The notes under the pieces: model-generated | Databases searched by the model: none | The model's input: only the letters and a program-made list of their open reading frames with translations | What the model was told of the DNA's origin: nothing | Position numbers and translations under genes: made by a program | Part shown: positions 28,819 to 37,351 of the stretch, piece by piece | How positions within the stretch are numbered: position 1 is the stretch's first letter | How the letters are laid out: every line of letters starts with the position of its first letter | Assembly (NCBI GenBank): GCA_021776805.1 | Contig: JAJFFD010000076.1 | Span: forward strand, 1 to 59,159 | Length of the DNA: 59,159 nt | Reading direction: 5' to 3' | Origin: Planctomycetota bacterium | GTDB lineage: Bacteria; Planctomycetota; UBA1135; UBA2386

Positions 28819-31545
28819 TCAGCGCCCGAGGGGAGGGTGCATGCGGAAGACCTTCTCCACCCGCCGTTCGCCGTGCTGAATGCGCAGCAGGTACTGGCCA
28901 GGCGCCGCTGCCGGGCCACTGGCCCGTCCGCGGCCACCGCCACCTGCGAAGAGGGCGGCGAAACCGCCGCGGCCACCTCGGGCGCGGGCCATGACCACCT
29001 CGTGGAGTCCGGCCTCGTTTTCGCCGCGCTTGCTGAAGACCTGCTCACCCTTGGCATTGAAGACCTTGATATCCACCGCCTCGTCGCTGTCCTGACTCAG
29101 GTAGTAGCGGAAGATCGGATTCTGCTCGGCGCGATCGGCGCGCCAACCGGCTGCTGCCTGGTAGCGGATCGTTGGGAAGCTGCTACCTGGAGTGTGTCCG
29201 TCCCGGGCTGGGAAGACATGGAAAGCTTGGCTGAGAATCTGTGGGTTCATGTCCGCGAGCGCAGCGATGTCCAGGATGTAGAAGCCGCGACCATGAGTGC
29301 CGATGACCAGGTCGTCCTCCCGCGGGTGCACGAGGAGATCGTGCACCGGGTTTGTGGGGAGATTGCCCCCGAGCTCGTGCCAATTGCCTCCGGAATCCAC
29401 GGAGACCATGACGCGGAACTCGGTGCCAACGAAGAGGACCGAAGGGTTGCGAGGGTGCTCGCGAACAACGTTGATGGGTTCTTGGGGGAGATTGTTGGCG
29501 ATGGAGCGGAAGCTCTCACCGGCGTCGCTAGTCATGTAGAGGAAGGGCTGCCGGATGTCCTCACGGTAGCCGGTGAAGGCTATGTAGGCTGTATCCGCGT
29601 CGCTGGCTGAGGCCTCGACGCGACTGACCCAGAGTGCTGGGGGTAGGTCGGGGAAGCGCGCGGAAAGATCGGTCCAGCGTCCACCGCCGTTGCGACTGGT
29701 CCAGACCTTGCCGTCATCGGTGCCCACCCAGAGCAGGTTCCGCTGCAGAGCGGATTCGGCGATGCTGGTAATCGTGCAATGCGGCACGTTGCCCTTGATC
29801 TTCTCTGGATCAGCGGTGCTCAGGTCCGGACTGATAGTTTCCCAGAGATCGCCGCGGTTGACGGAGCGGTGCAGGTACTGGCTGCCGAAGTAGACCGTGC
29901 TCGAATTGTGGGGCGAGATGAGGATGGGGGAGCTCCAGTTGAAACGCAGGGCTGGGCTGCCTTTTTCGGCGCTGGGTCTGATCCGCGTATTGCTGCCGGT
30001 CTTGAGATCGATGCGGCTGATGTTTCCGAACTGACTTTCGCTGTAAATCACGTCCGGGTCGCTGGGGTCGACTTGGACATAGAAGCCGTCGCCGCCATTG
30101 ATGCGGAATGCATCCCGATTGCGCAAGGAGTCACCGGTCACGGATCGCGAGGGGATCCCCCAGGATCCGTTGTCCTGGGTGCCGCCGTAGACTGTGTAGG
30201 GCTGCCGATTATCCACGGCCACCGTGTAGAACTGGGCGAGGGGGAGATCGTCGTGGTAGATCCAGCTCCCGCCACCGTCCCAGGTTTCGCCCAGGCCGCC
30301 ATCATTGCCGAGCAGTGCATGGTCCGGATTGCTCGGATCGAGCCAGAGGGCGTGGTTGTCAACGTGCAGGCCGCTGCCATAGCTGGCGTCCCAGGTCTTG
30401 CCCGCATCCCGCGAGCGTGCCACTCGCATGCCGATGACGTAGACGACATTGGAACTCTTCGGATCGACGCGTACCTGGCCGTAGTAATAGTGTGGGCTGC
30501 CACCGACAGGCTCGCTGTTCATCTTCGTCCAGCTCTCGCCATGGTCCTCGCTGCGGTAGAGTTCGCCGCCGACGCTGCGGCGCCGGGCAACTCGATCCTG
30601 AGCTTCCACGTCGTTCTCGGGCGCCGAGTCCTTGCCGCCATTGTTGGCGGCTTCGGTGGCGCGGCGTGCTGGTGGCCGCCGCTCGGCCGCTGCGGGATTG
30701 ACGTTCTCGATGAGGGCATAGACCACCCGCGGTTCCTGCGGCGAGATGGCCAGGCCGATGCGTCCGATCTGGCCGCTGGGAAGATTCTTGTCCAGCTTCT
30801 CCCAGTTGTCGCCACCGTCGCTGGTCTTGTAGATCCCAGAACCAGGGCCGTACTCGTAGAAGTGATGCGCCCGACGCCGTCGTTCATAGGCTGCGGCGTA
30901 CAGAATCTTGGGATTCTCCGGATCCATGGCCAGGTCGACGAAGCCCACATCCTCGCTGATGAACTTCACCAATTCCCAGCTGCTGCCGCCGTCTTGGCTG
31001 CGGTACAGGCCACGTTCCTGGTTGCTCTTGTAGAGGGCGCCCAGGGCGGCCACATAGACCAGGTCAGGATTCTCGGGGTGCACCAGAATGCGACCGATGT
31101 GTTCCGTGCCCTCGAGACCGACATGCTCCCAGGACTTGCCCGCGTTCGTCGACTTGTAGACGCCGTTGCCCCAGTACGAGCTGCGTTGGTTGTTGGCCTC
31201 ACCGCTGCCCAGATAGAGCACCTGAGAGTCGGAGGGGGCGATCGCAATATCCCCGATTGAGATGACGGCTTCTTTTTCGAAGACGGCTTCGAAGCTAGTG
31301 CCGTCGTTGATCGTCTTCCACAATCCGCCGCTGCCCGAAGCGACGTAGTAGGTGCTCGGGTTGTCGGCAACTGCTTCGATGTCGACTACCCGGCCGCTGA
31401 AGGTGCTCGGTCCGATCGACCGCCACTTCATCTGGGCGAAGACGTTGTTGCGCAGGAACTCCGAGTCCTGTTGGCCATGGAGGTCCGCTGTAGACAGGAG
31501 GCAAAGCAGGCCGCTGGTAACGATGGTCGTCCTCAGGTTCTTCAT
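28819..31545 (-). CDS. Exported BNR/sortilin-like beta-propeller protein
   Basis: A 908-residue exported protein with signal peptide (TSGLLCLLSTADLHGQ). The body is made of BNR/Asp-box repeats with the S-x-D-x-G-x-(S/T)-W pattern: KSTNAGKSWEHVG, RSQDGGSSWELV, KTSDGGDNWEKLD, RSEDHGESWTKM, TSRNGGGRWTDL, VSVDSGGNWHELG. This fits the VPS10/sortilin or xyloglucanase-like ten-bladed propellers often misnamed glycosyl hydrolases; I see no catalytic residues that prove hydrolysis. A Gly/Arg-rich linker near the C-terminus (RARGGRGGFAALFAG) precedes a short C-terminal beta segment. Start ATG has a strong GAGGAGG Shine-Dalgarno inside the end of the upstream paralog, 3 nt away. The pair is translationally coupled. 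Confidence 0.85.
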   Translation of the reverse strand: MKNLRTTIVTSGLLCLLSTADLHGQQDSEFLRNNVFAQMKWRSIGPSTFSGRVVDIEAVADNPSTYYVASGSGGLWKTINDGTSFEAVFEKEAVISIGDIAIAPSDSQVLYLGSGEANNQRSSYWGNGVYKSTNAGKSWEHVGLEGTEHIGRILVHPENPDLVYVAALGALYKSNQERGLYRSQDGGSSWELVKFISEDVGFVDLAMDPENPKILYAAAYERRRRAHHFYEYGPGSGIYKTSDGGDNWEKLDKNLPSGQIGRIGLAISPQEPRVVYALIENVNPAAAERRPPARRATEAANNGGKDSAPENDVEAQDRVARRRSVGGELYRSEDHGESWTKMNSEPVGGSPHYYYGQVRVDPKSSNVVYVIGMRVARSRDAGKTWDASYGSGLHVDNHALWLDPSNPDHALLGNDGGLGETWDGGGSWIYHDDLPLAQFYTVAVDNRQPYTVYGGTQDNGSWGIPSRSVTGDSLRNRDAFRINGGDGFYVQVDPSDPDVIYSESQFGNISRIDLKTGSNTRIRPSAEKGSPALRFNWSSPILISPHNSSTVYFGSQYLHRSVNRGDLWETISPDLSTADPEKIKGNVPHCTITSIAESALQRNLLWVGTDDGKVWTSRNGGGRWTDLSARFPDLPPALWVSRVEASASDADTAYIAFTGYREDIRQPFLYMTSDAGESFRSIANNLPQEPINVVREHPRNPSVLFVGTEFRVMVSVDSGGNWHELGGNLPTNPVHDLLVHPREDDLVIGTHGRGFYILDIAALADMNPQILSQAFHVFPARDGHTPGSSFPTIRYQAAAGWRADRAEQNPIFRYYLSQDSDEAVDIKVFNAKGEQVFSKRGENEAGLHEVVMARARGGRGGFAALFAGGGGRGRASGPAAAPGQYLLRIQHGERRVEKVFRMHPPLGR

Positions 31546-31548
31546 GGC

Positions 31549-34500
31549 TCAGTTCCTCCTCGCTGCAGGGCGAGAGTAGCCGGCTGGGTGCGTGCTTGTG
31601 CGGCGTTGCAGGGGTGATTCACCGTCCAGTGGGTCTGCTTCCAAGAGCAGGGCCTGAACTCGAGTCTCGCCGCCATGCTGCATGCGAACCGAGTAGTTGC
31701 CGGCTGGAGCTTGTCGCCCGCCGAAGCCGCCGCGGCGGCCACGCCCGCGAGCCGCGCGATTGCCCTCGGGGCTGGCGATGCGCCCGTTCCACTGCAGAGC
31801 CTGCAGCCCCGCAACTGGCTCACCGGTAAGTTTGGCGATCTGCTTGCCGGAGATATCGTGCACGGTTACTTCCGGCGCTGCCTCAGGTGCCGTACGCAGA
31901 TAGATGTAGATTGCGATACCCGGTGGGGGATTGGGCGCTGTCCAGGTGTCGTGACCTTGGATGCCGCGCCGCATGCTGCGCCAAACTGTGAGCCGATCCG
32001 GTTCAAAGAGGTGAGCATCCGACTGGGCGATGGCTTTGGTCATCTGCGCTAATGGGCTGATGTCCAAGAGCCAGATACCGCGGCCATGAGTCGCAGCGAT
32101 GAGCTCACCTTCGCGTAGTTGAATGTCCAAGTCTCTGACCGCCAGGTTGGGCAGGCCAGAGCCCAGCTTGAACCAGGCCTCGCCACGGTCCAGGCTCACA
32201 TAGCTGCCAAACTCGGTGCCCAGGAAGAGTAGGTCACCACTGGGGCCGCGGGGGTACTCGCGGAGTACATGGACCGGAGTCTCCGGGAGGTTCGCGAGCA
32301 GAGACTTCCAGGTATTGCCGCGATCCTCAGAGACAAAGACATAGGTGGATAGATCGTCGGAGCGATGGCCATCGAAGGTGATGTACAGCCGGTCTTCTTG
32401 GTGGCTAGAGGGCTCGATATGGCTGACGTAGCGTGGGCCGGGCATCCCCAAGACCTTCTCGTGCAGGGCAGTCCAATTTTCGCCGGCGTCTTCCGAGCGC
32501 CAAAGGGCGCCGTCGTCGGTGCCCACATAGAGCAGGCCCTCCACCAGCGGAGATTCGGCGAAGGCGGTTGCGCTGCCACGATCGCTGCGGCCGAGCTCAG
32601 GCGAAATGATGCTGCTGCTCCCACCTCGATTCAGGGAGCGACAGGCGACGTTGCCTGCGTAGTACAGGATGCGCGAATTGTGCGGCGAGAGGAAGAAGGG
32701 CGTGTCCCAGTTAAAGCGCGTGCCACTCGGCTTGCTGATCCGCCCTCTGCTTCTACCGCCGGCCATGTCGACCCTCCCCATACCACCATTTTGGCTGGTT
32801 GCGAAAACCACACTCGGGTCCTCGGGATCGATGCGCGCGCGGAAGCCGTCTCCACCGAAGATGGTGACCCAGTCGTCGATGCTGGTCCCTTCTGCATAGC
32901 GTGTGCGTGAGGGACCGCCCCAAGTGCCGTTGTCTTGCAGCCCACCGTAGATGCGGTAGGGGTGGGAGTTGTCTGCGTTGGCGTGATAGAACTGCCCGGC
33001 CACGAAGTTGTTCATGGCGCGCCAGGTCTTGCAGCGGTCATAGGTCTCGTAGAGTCCGCCGTCCGATCCGAGTAGCAGGTGATCCGAGTTGCGTGGGTCG
33101 ACCCAGACCGCGTGGAAGTCCGAGTGAATGCCTGCTTGAACTGTCCTGAAGGACTCGCCGCCGTCTTCGCTGGCATAGAAGGCGACTCCACAGGAATAGA
33201 TGTTCTCTGCGTCCTGCGGGTCCAGAGCTATGACGCTGTAGTAGAAGGGCCGCTCGGTGAGGCTGTTGATCCGTTGCCAGGTCTCCCCCTGGTCATCGGA
33301 GCGGAAGATGCCGCCGGTCTCGAAGCCGTCTTCCCCTTGCGCGCTCTGGACGTTCGGATTCTGCCCGCCGAGTCGTCCTGAGTATGGACCGCTCTGATTC
33401 TCTGCGGCTGCTTCGCGTTTGCCAAAGGTCAGTTTGACCGTCTTGCTGATCCCATCGCGGTTGTAGCTGATGTCGGTCTCGCTGCCGCCCTTGGCCTTGC
33501 CCACGTGACTGCTCAAGTCGGTGTACTTGCTGATGGTCTGATCGCCGATCTTCGTGATCAGGTCGCCGGGGGAGAGGCCGGCCTCGTCACCGGGGCCGCC
33601 AGGCGTCACCAGAGTCAGCTTGGCGCCGCCTTCCCCATCCTGGCCGCTGATGCCCATGTAGGCGTCGCCACGCTTGTTGGACTTCTTGACCCGTTCGTTG
33701 CCGGTTGCCCAGCCGTTGCGCTCGGTTTCGATGATCGCGAAGAGACTGCCATTCGGGTGCAGGTTCAGACCCGTGCGTCCCCACTTGACCGTTGGCAGAC
33801 CCTTATCGAGTCTCTGCCAATTGTCGCCGCCATCGTCGCTGCGATAGAGACCTGAGCTGGCGCTGAAGCGCACAGCTGGATCATTGCTATCGAATCCGTC
33901 ACGCATGCGCTCGTACATCGCCGCATAGACTCGCTGCGGGTTCGCCGGGTCGATGCGCACATCGATGCAGCCGGTTTTGTCATCGATGTAGAGGACCTTC
34001 TCCCAAGTCTTGCCGCCGTCCTTGCTGCGAAAGACCCCGCGGTCCGGATTGTGTCCCCAGAGTCTGCCGAGAGCGGCGACGTAGATAAGGTCCGATTGCT
34101 GAGGATGGATGGCGATATGACCGATCTGAAAGGTCTCCCGCAGCCCCATGTGGGAGAAAGTCTTGCCGCCGTCGGTCGACTTGTAGACGCCGTCTCCCCA
34201 GCTTACCGAGTTGCGCGCATTCTCCTCGCCAGTCCCGACCCAGACGATGTCCGAGTTCGAGGGGGCGACCGCGACGTCACCGATGGAGATCGTGGATTGG
34301 TTCTGAAAGAGGGCTTCCCAGGTTGTGCCCGCGTTCATGGTCTTCAGCAGACCACCGCCGGCGGTTGCCACGTACCAGGTGCTGTACTTGGGAGCGACGA
34401 TCTCCAGGTCCGTGATGCGTCCACCCATGTTTGCCGGGCCGAGCATGCGCCATTGCAGGGCGCGGACTTGGTTGGCGTCAAAGCTCGCCGCGGATTGCTC

Positions 34501-34563
34501 CGCTTCCTGGGCGGCGAGGCTGGAGGTGAACAGAAGGAGGGAGAGAATGGGGAGGCTGCGCAT
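31549..34563 (-). CDS. Exported BNR/sortilin-like beta-propeller protein with inserted PDZ domain
   Basis: About 1004 residues from ATG at 34563, chosen for the AAGGGAA Shine-Dalgarno and the signal peptide that begins there (MRSLPILSLLLFTSSLAAQ). It is a paralog of the next gene, with the same order of BNR blades (KSTDGGKTFSHMG, RSKDGGKTWEKV, RSDDGGDNWQRLD, RSDDQGETWQRI, RSEDAGENWTAL, VSEDRGNTWKSL). A PDZ domain is inserted at about residues 301-382 (AYMGISGQDG, GGPGDEAGLSPGDLITKIGDQTI, VGKAKGGSETDISYNRDG), a feature lacking in the downstream copy. The C-terminus again has an Arg/Gly-rich segment (RGRGRRGGFGGRQ). Extracytoplasmic protein binding or processing is likely; the substrate is unknown. 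Confidence 0.85.
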   Translation of the reverse strand: MRSLPILSLLLFTSSLAAQEAEQSAASFDANQVRALQWRMLGPANMGGRITDLEIVAPKYSTWYVATAGGGLLKTMNAGTTWEALFQNQSTISIGDVAVAPSNSDIVWVGTGEENARNSVSWGDGVYKSTDGGKTFSHMGLRETFQIGHIAIHPQQSDLIYVAALGRLWGHNPDRGVFRSKDGGKTWEKVLYIDDKTGCIDVRIDPANPQRVYAAMYERMRDGFDSNDPAVRFSASSGLYRSDDGGDNWQRLDKGLPTVKWGRTGLNLHPNGSLFAIIETERNGWATGNERVKKSNKRGDAYMGISGQDGEGGAKLTLVTPGGPGDEAGLSPGDLITKIGDQTISKYTDLSSHVGKAKGGSETDISYNRDGISKTVKLTFGKREAAAENQSGPYSGRLGGQNPNVQSAQGEDGFETGGIFRSDDQGETWQRINSLTERPFYYSVIALDPQDAENIYSCGVAFYASEDGGESFRTVQAGIHSDFHAVWVDPRNSDHLLLGSDGGLYETYDRCKTWRAMNNFVAGQFYHANADNSHPYRIYGGLQDNGTWGGPSRTRYAEGTSIDDWVTIFGGDGFRARIDPEDPSVVFATSQNGGMGRVDMAGGRSRGRISKPSGTRFNWDTPFFLSPHNSRILYYAGNVACRSLNRGGSSSIISPELGRSDRGSATAFAESPLVEGLLYVGTDDGALWRSEDAGENWTALHEKVLGMPGPRYVSHIEPSSHQEDRLYITFDGHRSDDLSTYVFVSEDRGNTWKSLLANLPETPVHVLREYPRGPSGDLLFLGTEFGSYVSLDRGEAWFKLGSGLPNLAVRDLDIQLREGELIAATHGRGIWLLDISPLAQMTKAIAQSDAHLFEPDRLTVWRSMRRGIQGHDTWTAPNPPPGIAIYIYLRTAPEAAPEVTVHDISGKQIAKLTGEPVAGLQALQWNGRIASPEGNRAARGRGRRGGFGGRQAPAGNYSVRMQHGGETRVQALLLEADPLDGESPLQRRTSTHPAGYSRPAARRN

Positions 34564-34591
34564 GGTTCCCTTCCGAACTGGGGGCTCTTGG

Positions 34592-34612
34592 GAGCGGGCG
34601 GGGGACCCGCTC
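34592..34612 (-). other. 7-bp GC hairpin upstream of the BNR/PDZ gene
   Basis: GAGCGGG and CCCGCTC separated by 7 nt form a perfect stem in the 144-nt gap between the AhpD-like gene and the BNR pair. There is no T-run on either side, so it may be a transcript-stabilising or rho-related structure rather than an intrinsic terminator. Function not inferable. Confidence 0.3.
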
Positions 34613-34707
34613 GGGCCAGCATACGCCAAGTCCGGGCAAGGTGTTGGGCCGCTTTCCAGGCTCCGGAGGGCCGTATCAGGCATGTATCCGTGCTTGCTGG
34701 CGCCGCG

Positions 34708-35253
34708 TCAGTCCTGCATCTCGGCTTCGAGATCCACACCCAATGCGTCCGCGACTCGGTTGATGTAATTGAAGTACGCAGCGACTTGCACGGTGGCATG
34801 GATCTCTTCGTCGCTCGCGCCTTGTTCTCGCAGTGCAGCAATGTCTTCTCGGCAGCAGGCTGCAGGTGTCCTGGTCAGTTTCAAGGCATAGGCGAGCAGG
34901 GCCCGGTAGCGCTCGTCCAGTGCAGCTTCCGGGTTTGCGGAGAGCAGTTGGTCGCGCAGTTCTTCGGGAGCCTGTGCACGCAGGTCCCAGCTATGCGCCT
35001 GCGTTCAATAGAAGCAATCGTTGGCTGCGGATACCTTGACCGCCACCAGTTCGCGAAACCAACGGGGCAGAGGGGAGCGTGGCGTGGTCGTTACGGCAGC
35101 ATAGAAGGTCATGGATGCATCCAGGATCTCAGGCTGGATGGACATCAATTTGATGATGCCGAAGACTCTTCCGGCGCGGGCGATGGCCGCCTGATAAATC
35201 TTGCCAATACGACCCTCGGTCTCTGTGTCGGGAACGGTGCGGATCCAAGCCAC
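34708..35253 (-). CDS. AhpD-like (carboxymuconolactone decarboxylase fold) peroxidase-related protein, probable selenoprotein (CxxU)
   Basis: Read through an in-frame TGA at 35005-35007, the frame encodes 181 residues, the normal length of the peroxidase-related AhpD-like family. The TGA is codon 83 in the context NDC80-F-Y-U83-T-Q-A-H87, exactly the second cysteine of the family's CxxC redox motif. Glu68 and His87 are spaced from it as Glu118 and His137 are in M. tuberculosis AhpD (C130/C133, as I recall). Beyond the TGA, family-like sequence continues (ALLAYALKLTRTPAACC, then GASDEEIHATVQVAAYFNYINRVADALG) to a stop at 34708. Start GTG has AAGGAG 8 nt upstream and lies 3 nt after the tgt stop. 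A bSECIS-like hairpin is at 34966-34988. The role would be thiol/selenol-dependent peroxide or disulfide chemistry in the cytoplasm. A nonsense-mutated pseudogene or base error is the alternative. Confidence 0.8.
34966..34988 (-). promoter_or_regulatory. Candidate bacterial SECIS element
   Basis: On the transcript the sequence GGGACCUG, loop CGUGCA, CAGG-C-UCCC forms 8 base pairs with a single bulged C. It begins 16 nt after the in-frame UGA, so the apical loop starts 24 nt after it. The loop has 6 nt with G as its second base. Published consensus features for bacterial SECIS elements, as I recall them, are a loop about 16-37 nt after the UGA and a G in the first two loop positions; both hold. 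It overlaps codons for residues 89-96, as expected for a bSECIS inside the coding region. An alternative 7-bp stem starts directly after the UGA (ACGCAGG with CCUGCGU) and would compete. Confidence 0.65.
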
Positions 35254-35256
35254 GAT

Positions 35257-36333
35257 CTAAGCTCCTTCGATGTCGGCGCGGATTTCGCGCATCAAGTCCT
35301 GGAAGTAGTGCAGGTTGTGCAGGCTGAGCAGAATTCCCGCGAGCATTTCACCCGAGACCGCAAGGTGGCGGAGGTAGGCGCGGGAGAATTCACGGCAGGT
35401 GTAGCAGGAACAGGCCTTGTCCAAGGGACCGAGGTCTTCGACATACTGCTGATTGCGCAACTTCAACGTGCCTTCCCGAGTGAATGCCTGGTTGTTGCGA
35501 CCATGACGAGTTGCGGTGACGCAGTCGAAGAGGTCGACGCCTGCGCTGATCGCACGACGGAAATCCTCAGGAGTTCCGACCCCCATGAGATAGCGGATCT
35601 TGTTGCTGGGCAGTTCGTCCACCGCTGCGTCCAAGGCGACCTCCATCTGCATCTTGGTCTCGCCGACGCTCAGTCCACCGATGGCGTAGCCATCGAACTC
35701 GAGGGCGCTCATCTCCCGCGCAGAGCTGGCGCGAAGCTCCGGATCGGGTCCGCCCTGAACGATGCCGAATAGGGCCTGGCCGCGTTCCGAGTCACCCCAT
35801 TGGCGATGGATCTCCCGTGCCTCGCGAGCCCAACGTAGGCTGCGATCATTCGCCTGCCGGACGCGCTCAGAAGATGCGTCACCGGCCGGACACTCATCCA
35901 AGACCATGGCGATGTCCGGTCCGAGATCGCGTTGAACTTCAAGGGCGAGGCCCGGAGTCAGTCGCTGTTGGGAGCCATCGATGATGGATCGGAAGCTGAC
36001 ACCGGCATCGTCGACCTTGCTTAGGTGACTCAGGGAGAAGATCTGATAACCACCCGAGTCGGTGAGGATGGGTCCATCCCAAGCCATGAAGCGATGCAGG
36101 CCACCGCAGCGTTTGATGAGCTCATGCCCAGGGCGGAGGAATAGGTGGTAGGCGTTGGCGAGGATGAGCTCACTGCCCGTTGTGCGCAGCTGCTCAGGGG
36201 TAATGCCCTTCATCGCGGCACGCGTTCCAACCGGCGCAAAGCAGGGAGTCTCGAAGCTGCCGTGAGGAGTGTGGTAGCGACCGCGACGGGCGCGACCCTT
36301 CTGCTGCAGGAGTTGGTAGCCGAATGCAGGCAC
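35257..36333 (-). CDS. tgt: Queuine/preQ1 tRNA-guanine transglycosylase
   Basis: About 358 residues from GTG at 36333, 4 nt after the ruvB stop; the longer frame into ruvB is a shadow. The conserved TGT segments are present: YHTPHGSFETPCFAPVGTRAAMKG, LILANAYHLFLRPG, DGPILTDSGGYQIFSL (first catalytic aspartate), DLGPDIAMVLDECP, GYAIGGLSVGE and GVDLFDCVTATRHGRN (second aspartate). The zinc site is CSCYTC followed by the LHNLHY histidine. It exchanges guanine-34 of tRNAs with GUN anticodons for preQ1 in queuosine synthesis. It is cotranscribed with ruvB upstream and the AhpD-like gene downstream. Confidence 0.96.
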   Translation of the reverse strand: MPAFGYQLLQQKGRARRGRYHTPHGSFETPCFAPVGTRAAMKGITPEQLRTTGSELILANAYHLFLRPGHELIKRCGGLHRFMAWDGPILTDSGGYQIFSLSHLSKVDDAGVSFRSIIDGSQQRLTPGLALEVQRDLGPDIAMVLDECPAGDASSERVRQANDRSLRWAREAREIHRQWGDSERGQALFGIVQGGPDPELRASSAREMSALEFDGYAIGGLSVGETKMQMEVALDAAVDELPSNKIRYLMGVGTPEDFRRAISAGVDLFDCVTATRHGRNNQAFTREGTLKLRNQQYVEDLGPLDKACSCYTCREFSRAYLRHLAVSGEMLAGILLSLHNLHYFQDLMREIRADIEGA

Positions 36334-36337
36334 GGGC

Positions 36338-37351
36338 TCAGTCGAAGGGCAGTTCTGCAGAGGCTTGTTCGCCTCTGGCTTCGAGGCCCAGGTGTTGCCG
36401 GGCCCGGTCGGTGGCCAGGCGGCCTCGGGGTGTCCGCAGGATGAGGGCGCAGCGCAGTAGATGCGGCTCGAAAACCTGTTCCAGGGTGTCCTCTGCCTCA
36501 TCTACCATGGCCGCAAGAGTCTTGAGTCCGGTGGGCTCCTGCCGCTCGATCAGAGCACGGAGGATGCGGCGATCCATCTCCTCCAGGCCGAGCTCGTCGA
36601 TGCGCAGACGCCGCAGGCCTTCTTCCACCGCTGGCAGGTCGATCTCTGCCTTGCCCTGCACCTGGGCGAGATCGCGCACCCGGCGTAGGAGGCGCAGCGC
36701 GACGCGGGGTACCCCGCGGCTGCGATCGGCAAGCAGGGTCGCTGGTTCGGCAGCGATCTTGACTTCCAGGCGGTCGGCAGCCAGTTCGAGGATGCGGCGG
36801 ATCTCCTGTGCGGGATAAGGATCAAGGCGCTCGATGAGGCCGAAGCGGCTGCGGAATGCGCCGCTCAGGAGCCCTTCTCGAGTGGTTGCTCCGACCAGGG
36901 TGAAGGGCGCCAGGCTGACCCGGACACTGCGGCCGGCGGGACCCTGCTCGAGCACCACGTCGATCGCACTGTCCTCCATCGCCGAGTAGAGATACTCCTC
37001 CACAGCTCTGGGCAGGCGATGGATCTCGTCCACGAAGAGGATGTCGCTGCGTTCGAGTCGGGTCAGGGTGCCCATCAGATCCTTGGGGCTGCTCAGGGCC
37101 GGGCCCGAAGTCGCCACCAGGGCGCTGTCCATGGAGCTGGCGATGAGGTGAGCCAGGGTTGTCTTGCCCAGTCCGGGAGGGCCGGCGAAGAGCAGATGAT
37201 CCAGAGGTTCCTGCCGCTGACGAGTTGCTTGGATGGCTACGCGCAGGTTTTCACAGGTGCGTTCCTGGCCGATGAAGCCGCTGAAACTGGTCGGTCGAAG
37301 TGCCCGGTCGTAGTCCTGCTCGTCGGGCTGCGCCTGGGCGTCGAAGATCAT
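36338..37351 (-). CDS. ruvB: Holliday junction branch-migration helicase RuvB
   Basis: A 337-residue AAA+ motor with Walker A LLFAGPPGLGKTTLAHLIA, Walker B DILFVDEIHRLPRAVEEYLY, sensor 1 FTLVGATTREGLLSGAFRSRFG and the arginine of sensor 2 in SRGVPRVALRLLRRVRDLA. The C-terminal winged helix has GLKTLAAMVDEAEDTLEQVFEPHLLR. It drives branch migration with RuvA, which is not in this window. First gene of the ruvB-tgt-ahpD-like operon on the minus strand. Confidence 0.97.
   Translation of the reverse strand: MIFDAQAQPDEQDYDRALRPTSFSGFIGQERTCENLRVAIQATRQRQEPLDHLLFAGPPGLGKTTLAHLIASSMDSALVATSGPALSSPKDLMGTLTRLERSDILFVDEIHRLPRAVEEYLYSAMEDSAIDVVLEQGPAGRSVRVSLAPFTLVGATTREGLLSGAFRSRFGLIERLDPYPAQEIRRILELAADRLEVKIAAEPATLLADRSRGVPRVALRLLRRVRDLAQVQGKAEIDLPAVEEGLRRLRIDELGLEEMDRRILRALIERQEPTGLKTLAAMVDEAEDTLEQVFEPHLLRCALILRTPRGRLATDRARQHLGLEARGEQASAELPFD

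What the first reader, a model, noticed from the sequence alone, without database searches (positions are those of the whole stretch)
34708..35253. Unannotated selenoprotein: AhpD-like gene with UGA at the second redox cysteine (CxxU)
The frame stops at TGA (35005-35007) in NDCFY-stop-TQAH, precisely where family members have the second Cys of CxxC. Downstream reading keeps the family sequence for 98 residues to a normal stop. Glu68 and His87 keep the AhpD catalytic spacing relative to Cys80/Sec83. An ordinary caller reports an 82-residue truncated protein and leaves the rest as a gap. AhpD-like selenoproteins are, as I recall, known from marine metagenomic surveys, so the family is plausible; this operon context (ruvB-tgt) is new to me.
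Basis: partly seen in the sequence, partly recalled or inferred. Interest (0 to 1): 0.92.

Follow-up and report, generated by a model that had tools for sequence, protein, structure and literature searches.

The report
AhpD-like selenoprotein with CxxU site
A stop codon in the middle of this planctomycete gene very likely inserts the selenium amino acid selenocysteine into a predicted peroxide-reducing enzyme; the same in-frame codon sits at that spot in all 80 named relatives examined, and the enzyme family is already on published selenoprotein lists, so this is a well-supported new member rather than a new kind.

Summary
On the minus strand, 35253-34708, an AhpD-like (TIGR01926) frame runs through TGA 35005-35007, where solved homologues have the second Cys of CxxC, then 98 more residues to a TGA stop. 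The genome has selA, selB, selD (itself with an in-frame TGA) and a UCA tRNA-Sec. All 80 named-genome loci examined, and the 30 best loci from 61 kin genomes (one is the window's own), carry TGA at this column; the few Cys forms found nest among Sec forms or in a sister clade. Behind the UGA lies a 6-bp hairpin with covariation (83.8% of cells paired, 0 of 500 shuffles as high) and strong synonymous-codon bias; the window's copy has a both-sides change at the loop-closing pair. Two alternative hairpins fail that test. Weak points: the window's RNA folded alone is unremarkable (z -0.49) and prefers another helix, RNAalifold predicts nothing, and no protein evidence exists. The family is catalogued: AhpD-like, TIGR01926, CxxU (PMC13188914, citing PMC1088965). 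The ruvB-tgt neighbourhood is not conserved. Added here: near-fixation of Sec in this clade, the covarying hairpin, and a second AhpD-like Sec gene in the same genome. Real, new member of a known kind, modest interest.

The parts
34708..35253 (-). AhpD-like selenoprotein gene, 181 residues read through UGA, GTG start, TGA stop (34708-34710)
   Evidence: TIGR01926 above cut-off; PF02627; AlphaFold2 mean pLDDT 94.8
35005..35007 (-). in-frame UGA, predicted selenocysteine (Sec83 of C80-F-Y-U83)
   Evidence: same TGA in 80 of 80 named loci and in 30 of 30 best loci of 61 genomes, own included
34966..34988 (-). candidate bacterial SECIS hairpin: 8-bp stem with one bulge, 6-nt loop CGUGCA (34975-34980), 24 nt between UGA and loop
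   Evidence: -10.6 kcal/mol for this segment; covariation over 99 sequences; codon bias; not the best fold of the full 48 nt
35262..35267 (-). AAGGAG, Shine-Dalgarno-like, 8 nt before the GTG start
   Evidence: read from sequence
35257..36501 (-). tgt, tRNA guanosine(34) transglycosylase; its stop TAG ends 3 nt before the GTG start
   Evidence: TIGR00430 446.9 bits, cut-off 306.75
36338..37351 (-). ruvB, upstream of tgt
   Evidence: TIGR00635 382.1 bits, cut-off 299.05

Best explanation
The gene at 35253-34708 carries an in-frame UGA where solved relatives have the second Cys of CxxC, and it is very likely translated through as selenocysteine to give a 181-residue AhpD-like selenoprotein. Inferred mechanism: SelB carrying Sec-tRNA(Sec) would bind the hairpin that spans nucleotides 17-39 after the UGA while the ribosome waits there, so this UGA is decoded as Sec, while the UGA at the end of the same gene stops translation. 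Predicted chemistry: Glu68 and His87 serve the AhpD proton relay, Sec83 attacks a hydroperoxide as a selenolate, the selenenic acid is resolved by Cys80 to a selenenylsulfide, and an unknown thiol donor reduces it. Shown: the frame, the conserved TGA, the machinery genes, the covarying hairpin, the residue spacing. Inferred: Sec insertion itself and peroxidase activity.
For: TGA at the column in 80 of 80 named loci and 30 of 30 best loci of 61 genomes, own included. selA 478.5 bits, selB 349.1, selD 353.2 with one internal TGA in SCAGUAAK, tRNA-Sec 72.8 bits, all over their cut-offs, anticodon UCA. Hairpin: 83.8% of 594 cells paired against 80.9% shuffled (0 of 500 as high), 5 of 6 pairs with changes on both sides; slid versions at most 52.4%. 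Leu codon CTC in 89 of 96 Leu, 40.6% elsewhere in the genes; Arg codon CGT in 51 of 92 Arg, 9.8% elsewhere. 69 of 99 sequences have their best hairpin within the published limits with the loop at position 28 or 29, against 34 of 594 control stretches of the same genes and 105 of 495 synonymous shuffles (limits from PMC13188914, passages). Glu-12-Cys-3-Sec-4-His spacing equals Glu118/Cys130/Cys133/His137 of AhpD (PMC3141380, passages). Fold: best chains of 3c1l, 2prr, 6k40, 2oyo at TM 0.84-0.88.
Against: No peptide, ribosome-profiling or 75Se data. The window's 48 nt from UGA folded alone is no more stable than shuffles (z -0.49, 58 of 200 as good) and prefers another helix, ACGCAGG with CCUGCGU; the SECIS hairpin has pair probability 0.09 in that fold and 0.99-1.0 once the first 12 nt are left out. 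RNAalifold predicted no structure on the 99 sequences. Against its own synonymous shuffles the window's segment is not exceptional (20% fold as well). 12 of 99 sequences keep 3 or fewer of the 6 pairs, and 17 of 99 meet the published limits nowhere in my scan. The shuffles do not keep relatedness. selA is found in 59 of 61 relatives, so co-occurrence cannot discriminate.
Confidence: 0.95

Rival explanations
1. Sequencing or assembly error: the true codon is TGC or TGT and the protein is an ordinary CxxC AhpD.
For: The window lies in a draft assembly of 228 contigs, and reads were not available.
Against: The same TGA in 80 of 80 named loci from many assemblies and several phyla, with a covarying hairpin behind it.
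Confidence: 0.01
2. Pseudogene: a nonsense mutation has killed the gene.
For: A stop in the frame.
Against: The 98 downstream residues keep the family sequence and end at a normal stop; the stop is at the catalytic column in the relatives read; synonymous codons behind it are biased.
Confidence: 0.01
3. The organism reads UGA as tryptophan, or near-cognate tRNAs leak through, without selenium.
For: 4 of 8 near-full-length database homologues have Trp at this column (P0004, P0005, P0009, P0011), which a gene caller set to UGA=Trp would print (inference; their DNA was not seen).
Against: 27 of 37 large non-overlapping window ORFs end in TGA, and so does this gene; selA, selB, selD and tRNA-Sec are present; the column is Cys in the three solved relatives aligned.
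Confidence: 0.02
4. It is a selenoprotein but not a peroxidase: the AhpD fold serves another thiol/selenol reaction such as disulfide relay or reductive dehalogenation.
For: A debrominase, Bmp8, is among the structural matches (6ohi, TM 0.77); TIGR01926 is named only 'peroxidase-related'; the electron donor is unknown and no search for ahpC was made.
Against: Full Glu/Cys/Sec/His relay spacing and best matches to AhpD-type proteins.
Confidence: 0.25

Closest known systems
AhpD-like selenoprotein family (TIGR01926, CxxU), Sargasso Sea and later lists
   Same: TIGR01926 member, Sec at the second redox position, hairpin behind UGA. Listed as AhpD-like protein, TIGR01926, CxxU in PMC13188914, citing PMC1088965 (passages); 27 sequences in PMC1088965 (passages).
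   Different: No defining difference seen; their sequences were not compared here. This copy has a C-G to G-C change at the loop-closing pair. The clade here has few Cys forms, whereas PMC2398784 lists 299 Sec and 902 Cys for AhpD-like 1 (passages; COG2128, not shown to be the same subset).
NF041238, alkylhydroperoxidase-related (seleno)protein, CFYUT motif
   Same: The window protein has the same C-F-Y-U-T motif.
   Different: Model of 357 positions; window protein scores 71.7 bits with Cys for U and 64 in the genome scan, cut-off 175; no gene of this genome passes.
Cys peroxidase-related proteins of known structure (3c1l, 2prr, 6k40, 2oyo)
   Same: Fold (TM 0.84-0.88); Glu, Cys, His positions in the three shown as alignments (6k40, 2oyo, 3c1l).
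   Different: Cys in place of Sec; 26-32% identity.
Second AhpD-like Sec gene of the same genome (G000:C30:22797-23342)
   Same: CxxU, similar length, TGA at the same column.
   Different: 36% identical, separate clade, CHYU-LVHHRRG, and a perfect 7-bp hairpin with GGUCU loop.

Membership tests
Bacterial selenoprotein | in-frame UGA aligned with a redox Cys of homologues | tested here: met
Bacterial selenoprotein | selA, selB, selD, tRNA-Sec in the same genome | tested here: met
   each over its curated cut-off; UCA anticodon
Bacterial selenoprotein | bacterial SECIS: 4-16 bp upper stem, 3-9 nt loop, G in first two loop positions, 16-37 nt from UGA to loop, at most -7.5 kcal/mol (limits as printed in PMC13188914) | tested here: met
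   8 bp, 6-nt loop CGUGCA, 24 nt, -10.6 kcal/mol for 34966-34988; the limits are loose (186 of 594 control stretches pass) and this is not the best fold of the whole 48 nt
Bacterial selenoprotein | Sec present in the protein | not testable with these tools
   needs mass spectrometry or 75Se
TIGR01926 peroxidase-related enzyme | score above curated cut-off | tested here: met
   112.5 bits, cut-off 81.8, with Cys for U
NF041238 AhpD_rel_CFYUT | score above curated cut-off | tested here: not met
   71.7 of 175 bits; 64 bits in genome scan
AhpD-type peroxidase | Glu/Cys/Cys(Sec)/His relay spacing | tested here: met
   invariant in 14 of 14 rows and in 30 of 31 rows of A3, the exception being a row I took from a wrong place; spacing as in PMC3141380
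AhpD-type peroxidase | hydroperoxide reduction | not testable with these tools
   no assay

The most novel reading that the evidence does not exclude
This marks a clade of AhpD-type enzymes, spread over Planctomycetota, Acidobacteriota, Armatimonadota and others, in which selenocysteine is fixed and effectively irreplaceable, with a clade-specific SECIS (GAYCUC-CG[UG]NNN-GAGRUC) that evolves by compensatory change, and Cys arises only as rare secondary loss; the chemistry would then be one that Cys serves poorly.
Probability: 0.4. Interest if true: 0.5.

Novelty: new member of a known kind. Interest (0 to 1): 0.33.

Why it matters
It is a clean case where annotation cuts a likely working gene in two: of 120 database proteins listed for the read-through query, 111 are fragments under 150 residues. 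The alignment and hairpin would help annotators recognise such records, and a clade that keeps Sec almost without exception is a good place to ask what Sec does that Cys cannot.

Tried and rejected
Alternative hairpins: columns 17-21/25-29 (60.4% paired, 155 of 500 shuffles as high) and columns 4-10/24-30 plus a small one (55.7%, 390 of 500): rejected as the common element. RNAalifold on 99 sequences gave no structure. Co-occurrence with selA was uninformative: 59 of 61 relatives have a match, 57 over the cut-off; the two without are 73% and 56% complete, and one of them (G011) carries the Sec gene. A conserved tgt-ruvB operon: in none of 133 other loci. Other Sec genes in the window: nine of the ten gaps over 300 nt between large ORFs (1-618 left out) were read in six frames with TGA as U and looked over by eye, without a homology search; nothing else stood out. 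Rows dropped: 28 repeated stretches among 127 TGA loci before the hairpin count (99 kept); the 25 loci missed by the first motif search were read by tblastn and are not in the hairpin count. Weak matches without stops (E of about 1e-12 and weaker) were not read. The tree left out L083 (Leu) and five database proteins with Trp or Arg. One of 31 rows of alignment A3 (L033) was taken from a wrong place and is not the protein; it went into the structure prediction, which was not repeated. One search translated the wrong strand and was not used.

Full report
What is there. On the minus strand a GTG at 35253, 3 nt behind the tgt stop and 8 nt behind AAGGAG, opens a frame that meets TGA at 35005-35007 after NDCFY and, read on, runs 98 residues to TGA 34708-34710. 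Read with Cys at the TGA, the protein passes the cut-offs of PF02627 (59.9 bits, cut-off 23) and TIGR01926 peroxidase-related enzyme (112.5, cut-off 81.8) and falls short of NF041238 (71.7, cut-off 175). Nine distinct solved sequences match; the three shown as alignments have Cys at this column. Its AlphaFold2 model (31 rows, one of them wrong, see below; mean pLDDT 94.8) matches the best chains of 3c1l, 2prr, 6k40 and 2oyo at TM 0.84-0.88.

Machinery. The window's assembly (5.2 Mb, 228 contigs, 91% complete) has selA 478.5 bits, selB 349.1, selD 353.2 with one internal TGA, and tRNA-Sec 72.8 bits, each over its cut-off; weaker matches to selB, selD and tRNA-Sec ring in all 14 control genomes, so the cut-off is what counts. 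ARAGORN calls the tRNA-Sec with anticodon TCA. selA and selD lie side by side on C93; selD's TGA stands in SCAGUAAK. UGA is also the commonest stop in the window: 27 of 37 non-overlapping ORFs of 150 or more residues, picked mechanically.

Conservation. In 61 genomes (own, same family, same order) 46 have a match at E 0.001. The 30 best loci, one of them the window's own, were fetched: 30 of 30 have TGA at column 84 of the query (27, 3). Weaker matches of the same search, at about 1e-12 and beyond, include several without stops and were not read. In 392 genomes of the phylum 140 match at 1e-15; the list is cut, and among the rows shown I noted eight full matches without a stop, fetched on purpose: seven have Cys, one Leu. 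In named genomes 80 loci were kept as the best of 295 relatives, found by two C-terminal patterns: 80 of 80 have TGA (74, 6; recounted). Of all 154 loci read (L021-L174, some places held under two or three ids) 146 have TGA, 7 Cys, 1 Leu. One relative, G046, has a frame break behind the TGA. Genome G013, of the window's family, is the record JANQJF010000029 named Planctomycetota (L023 lies in L096), so the window is from a planctomycete.

Proteins in databases. A search of 5.8 billion proteins gave 151 hits at 1e-10, 120 listed. 8 are near full length; at the Sec column they have Cys (3), Trp (4) and Arg (1); one more of 178 residues aligns over 39% only; 111 are under 150 residues. Trp is what a caller set to UGA=Trp would print (inference, DNA not seen).

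Tree. 119 rows (109 Sec, 10 Cys): the window's clade has 106 rows, 103 Sec and 3 Cys (P0003, P0008, L078), each Cys row apart from the others among Sec rows; the label needs 5 changes, starred branches force 3, 0 of 500 shuffles as low. The bootstrap had not settled, the root is a midpoint, several forks there are open, L078 has a long branch, and the Cys rows were partly chosen by me, so the direction Sec to Cys is likely, not proven. A second clade holds this genome's other Sec gene (C30:22797-23342) with five Sec relatives, beside Cys rows.

The hairpin. Counting T of TGA as 1, columns 22-27 pair with 34-39 around a 6-nt loop. Over 99 distinct sequences 83.8% of 594 cells pair (shuffles 80.9, 0 of 500 as high), 5 of 6 pairs show a change on both sides, and partners slid by 1-3 columns reach 52.4% at most. 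The shuffles do not keep relatedness, and part of the high base level comes from the conserved Asp-Leu-Arg. Codon choice adds a second line: Leu is CTC in 89 of 96 (40.6% elsewhere in the same genes); Arg is CGT 51, CGG 38, CGC 3 of 92, against CGC 51%, CGG 25%, CGT 10% elsewhere. Against synonymous shuffles the 99 segments fold better on average (mean z -0.91, 49 below -1, 16 above 0), the window's own only slightly (20% of shuffles as good). With the published bacterial limits (PMC13188914, passages) 82 of 99 have a qualifying hairpin in my scan, 69 with the loop starting at 28 or 29; in-gene control stretches give 186 of 594 and 34, synonymous shuffles 260 of 495 and 105. The limits alone are therefore loose; the fixed place of the loop is the signal. 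In 16 of 99 the loop region reads CGGUCG, which can close to a GGUC loop; in the window it is CGUGCA, and the closing pair is G-C, alone among the 99, where 89 have C-G.

Against. The window's 48 nt fold no better than shuffles (z -0.49, 58 of 200 as good) and prefer a helix of ACGCAGG with CCUGCGU. The SECIS hairpin has probability 0.09 there and 0.99-1.0 when the first 12 nt, which a ribosome at the UGA would cover, are left out. That the ribosome opens the rival helix is inference. 12 of 99 sequences keep 3 or fewer pairs, 17 of 99 meet the limits nowhere, and RNAalifold gave no structure.

Function. Glu68, Cys80, Sec83 and His87 are invariant in 14 of 14 rows (there numbered one higher) and in 30 of 31 rows of A3, the exception being a row from a wrong place. 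The spacing is that of the relay Glu118, Cys130, Cys133, His137 described in PMC3141380 (passages); the fifth relay position is Tyr82 here, as Tyr50 in PA0269 of that paper. That Cys133 is the residue attacking peroxide is recalled, not read. Sec at that place would be expected to react faster. The electron donor is unknown.

Literature. PMC1088965 (passages) reports 27 AhpD-like CxxU selenoproteins; PMC2398784 (passages) lists AhpD-like 1 and 2; PMC13188914 (passages) lists AhpD-like, TIGR01926, CxxU, citing PMC1088965. PMC4807772 (passages) reports selenoproteins in two planctomycetes; 'AhpD' does not occur in its main text, and its tables were not seen. The listings, over open PubMed Central text only, showed no title on fixation of Sec in this clade; that is a thin search.

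Noticed in passing
G000:C30:22797-23342 (L075): Second AhpD-like gene of the same genome with TGA in CHYU and a perfect CCGGCGC-GGUCU-GCGCCGG hairpin behind it; separate clade.
   Followed up: partly
L010:1531 (G000:C93): selD itself has an in-frame TGA in SCAGUAAK and lies beside selA.
   Followed up: partly
L043 (G039) around the TGA: A relative with TGA whose hairpin loop reads GAAAAA in place of CGUGNN; only 3 of 6 pairs kept.
   Followed up: no
L060, L154, L158, L163, L164 and L166: The GAG arm is missing or weakened; GGAG-GAU-CUCC (or GAG-GAU-CUC) just upstream could form a shorter hairpin instead, possibly a second SECIS type.
   Followed up: partly
L036 = L086 = L129 (G046:C37:21703-22226): The gene is in two frames (residues 2-109 and 116-181 of the query), a frameshift behind the Sec codon or an assembly error.
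   Followed up: no
28819-34683 minus: Two large repeat proteins of 908 and 1044 aa (NF045728-like, below cut-off; the larger with a PDZ/HtrA-like stretch) lie downstream; both also match next to the Sec gene in L025, the only one of 133 other loci.
   Followed up: partly
P0004, P0005, P0009, P0011: Database proteins of this family with Trp at the Sec column, probably UGA read as Trp by the gene caller.
   Followed up: no
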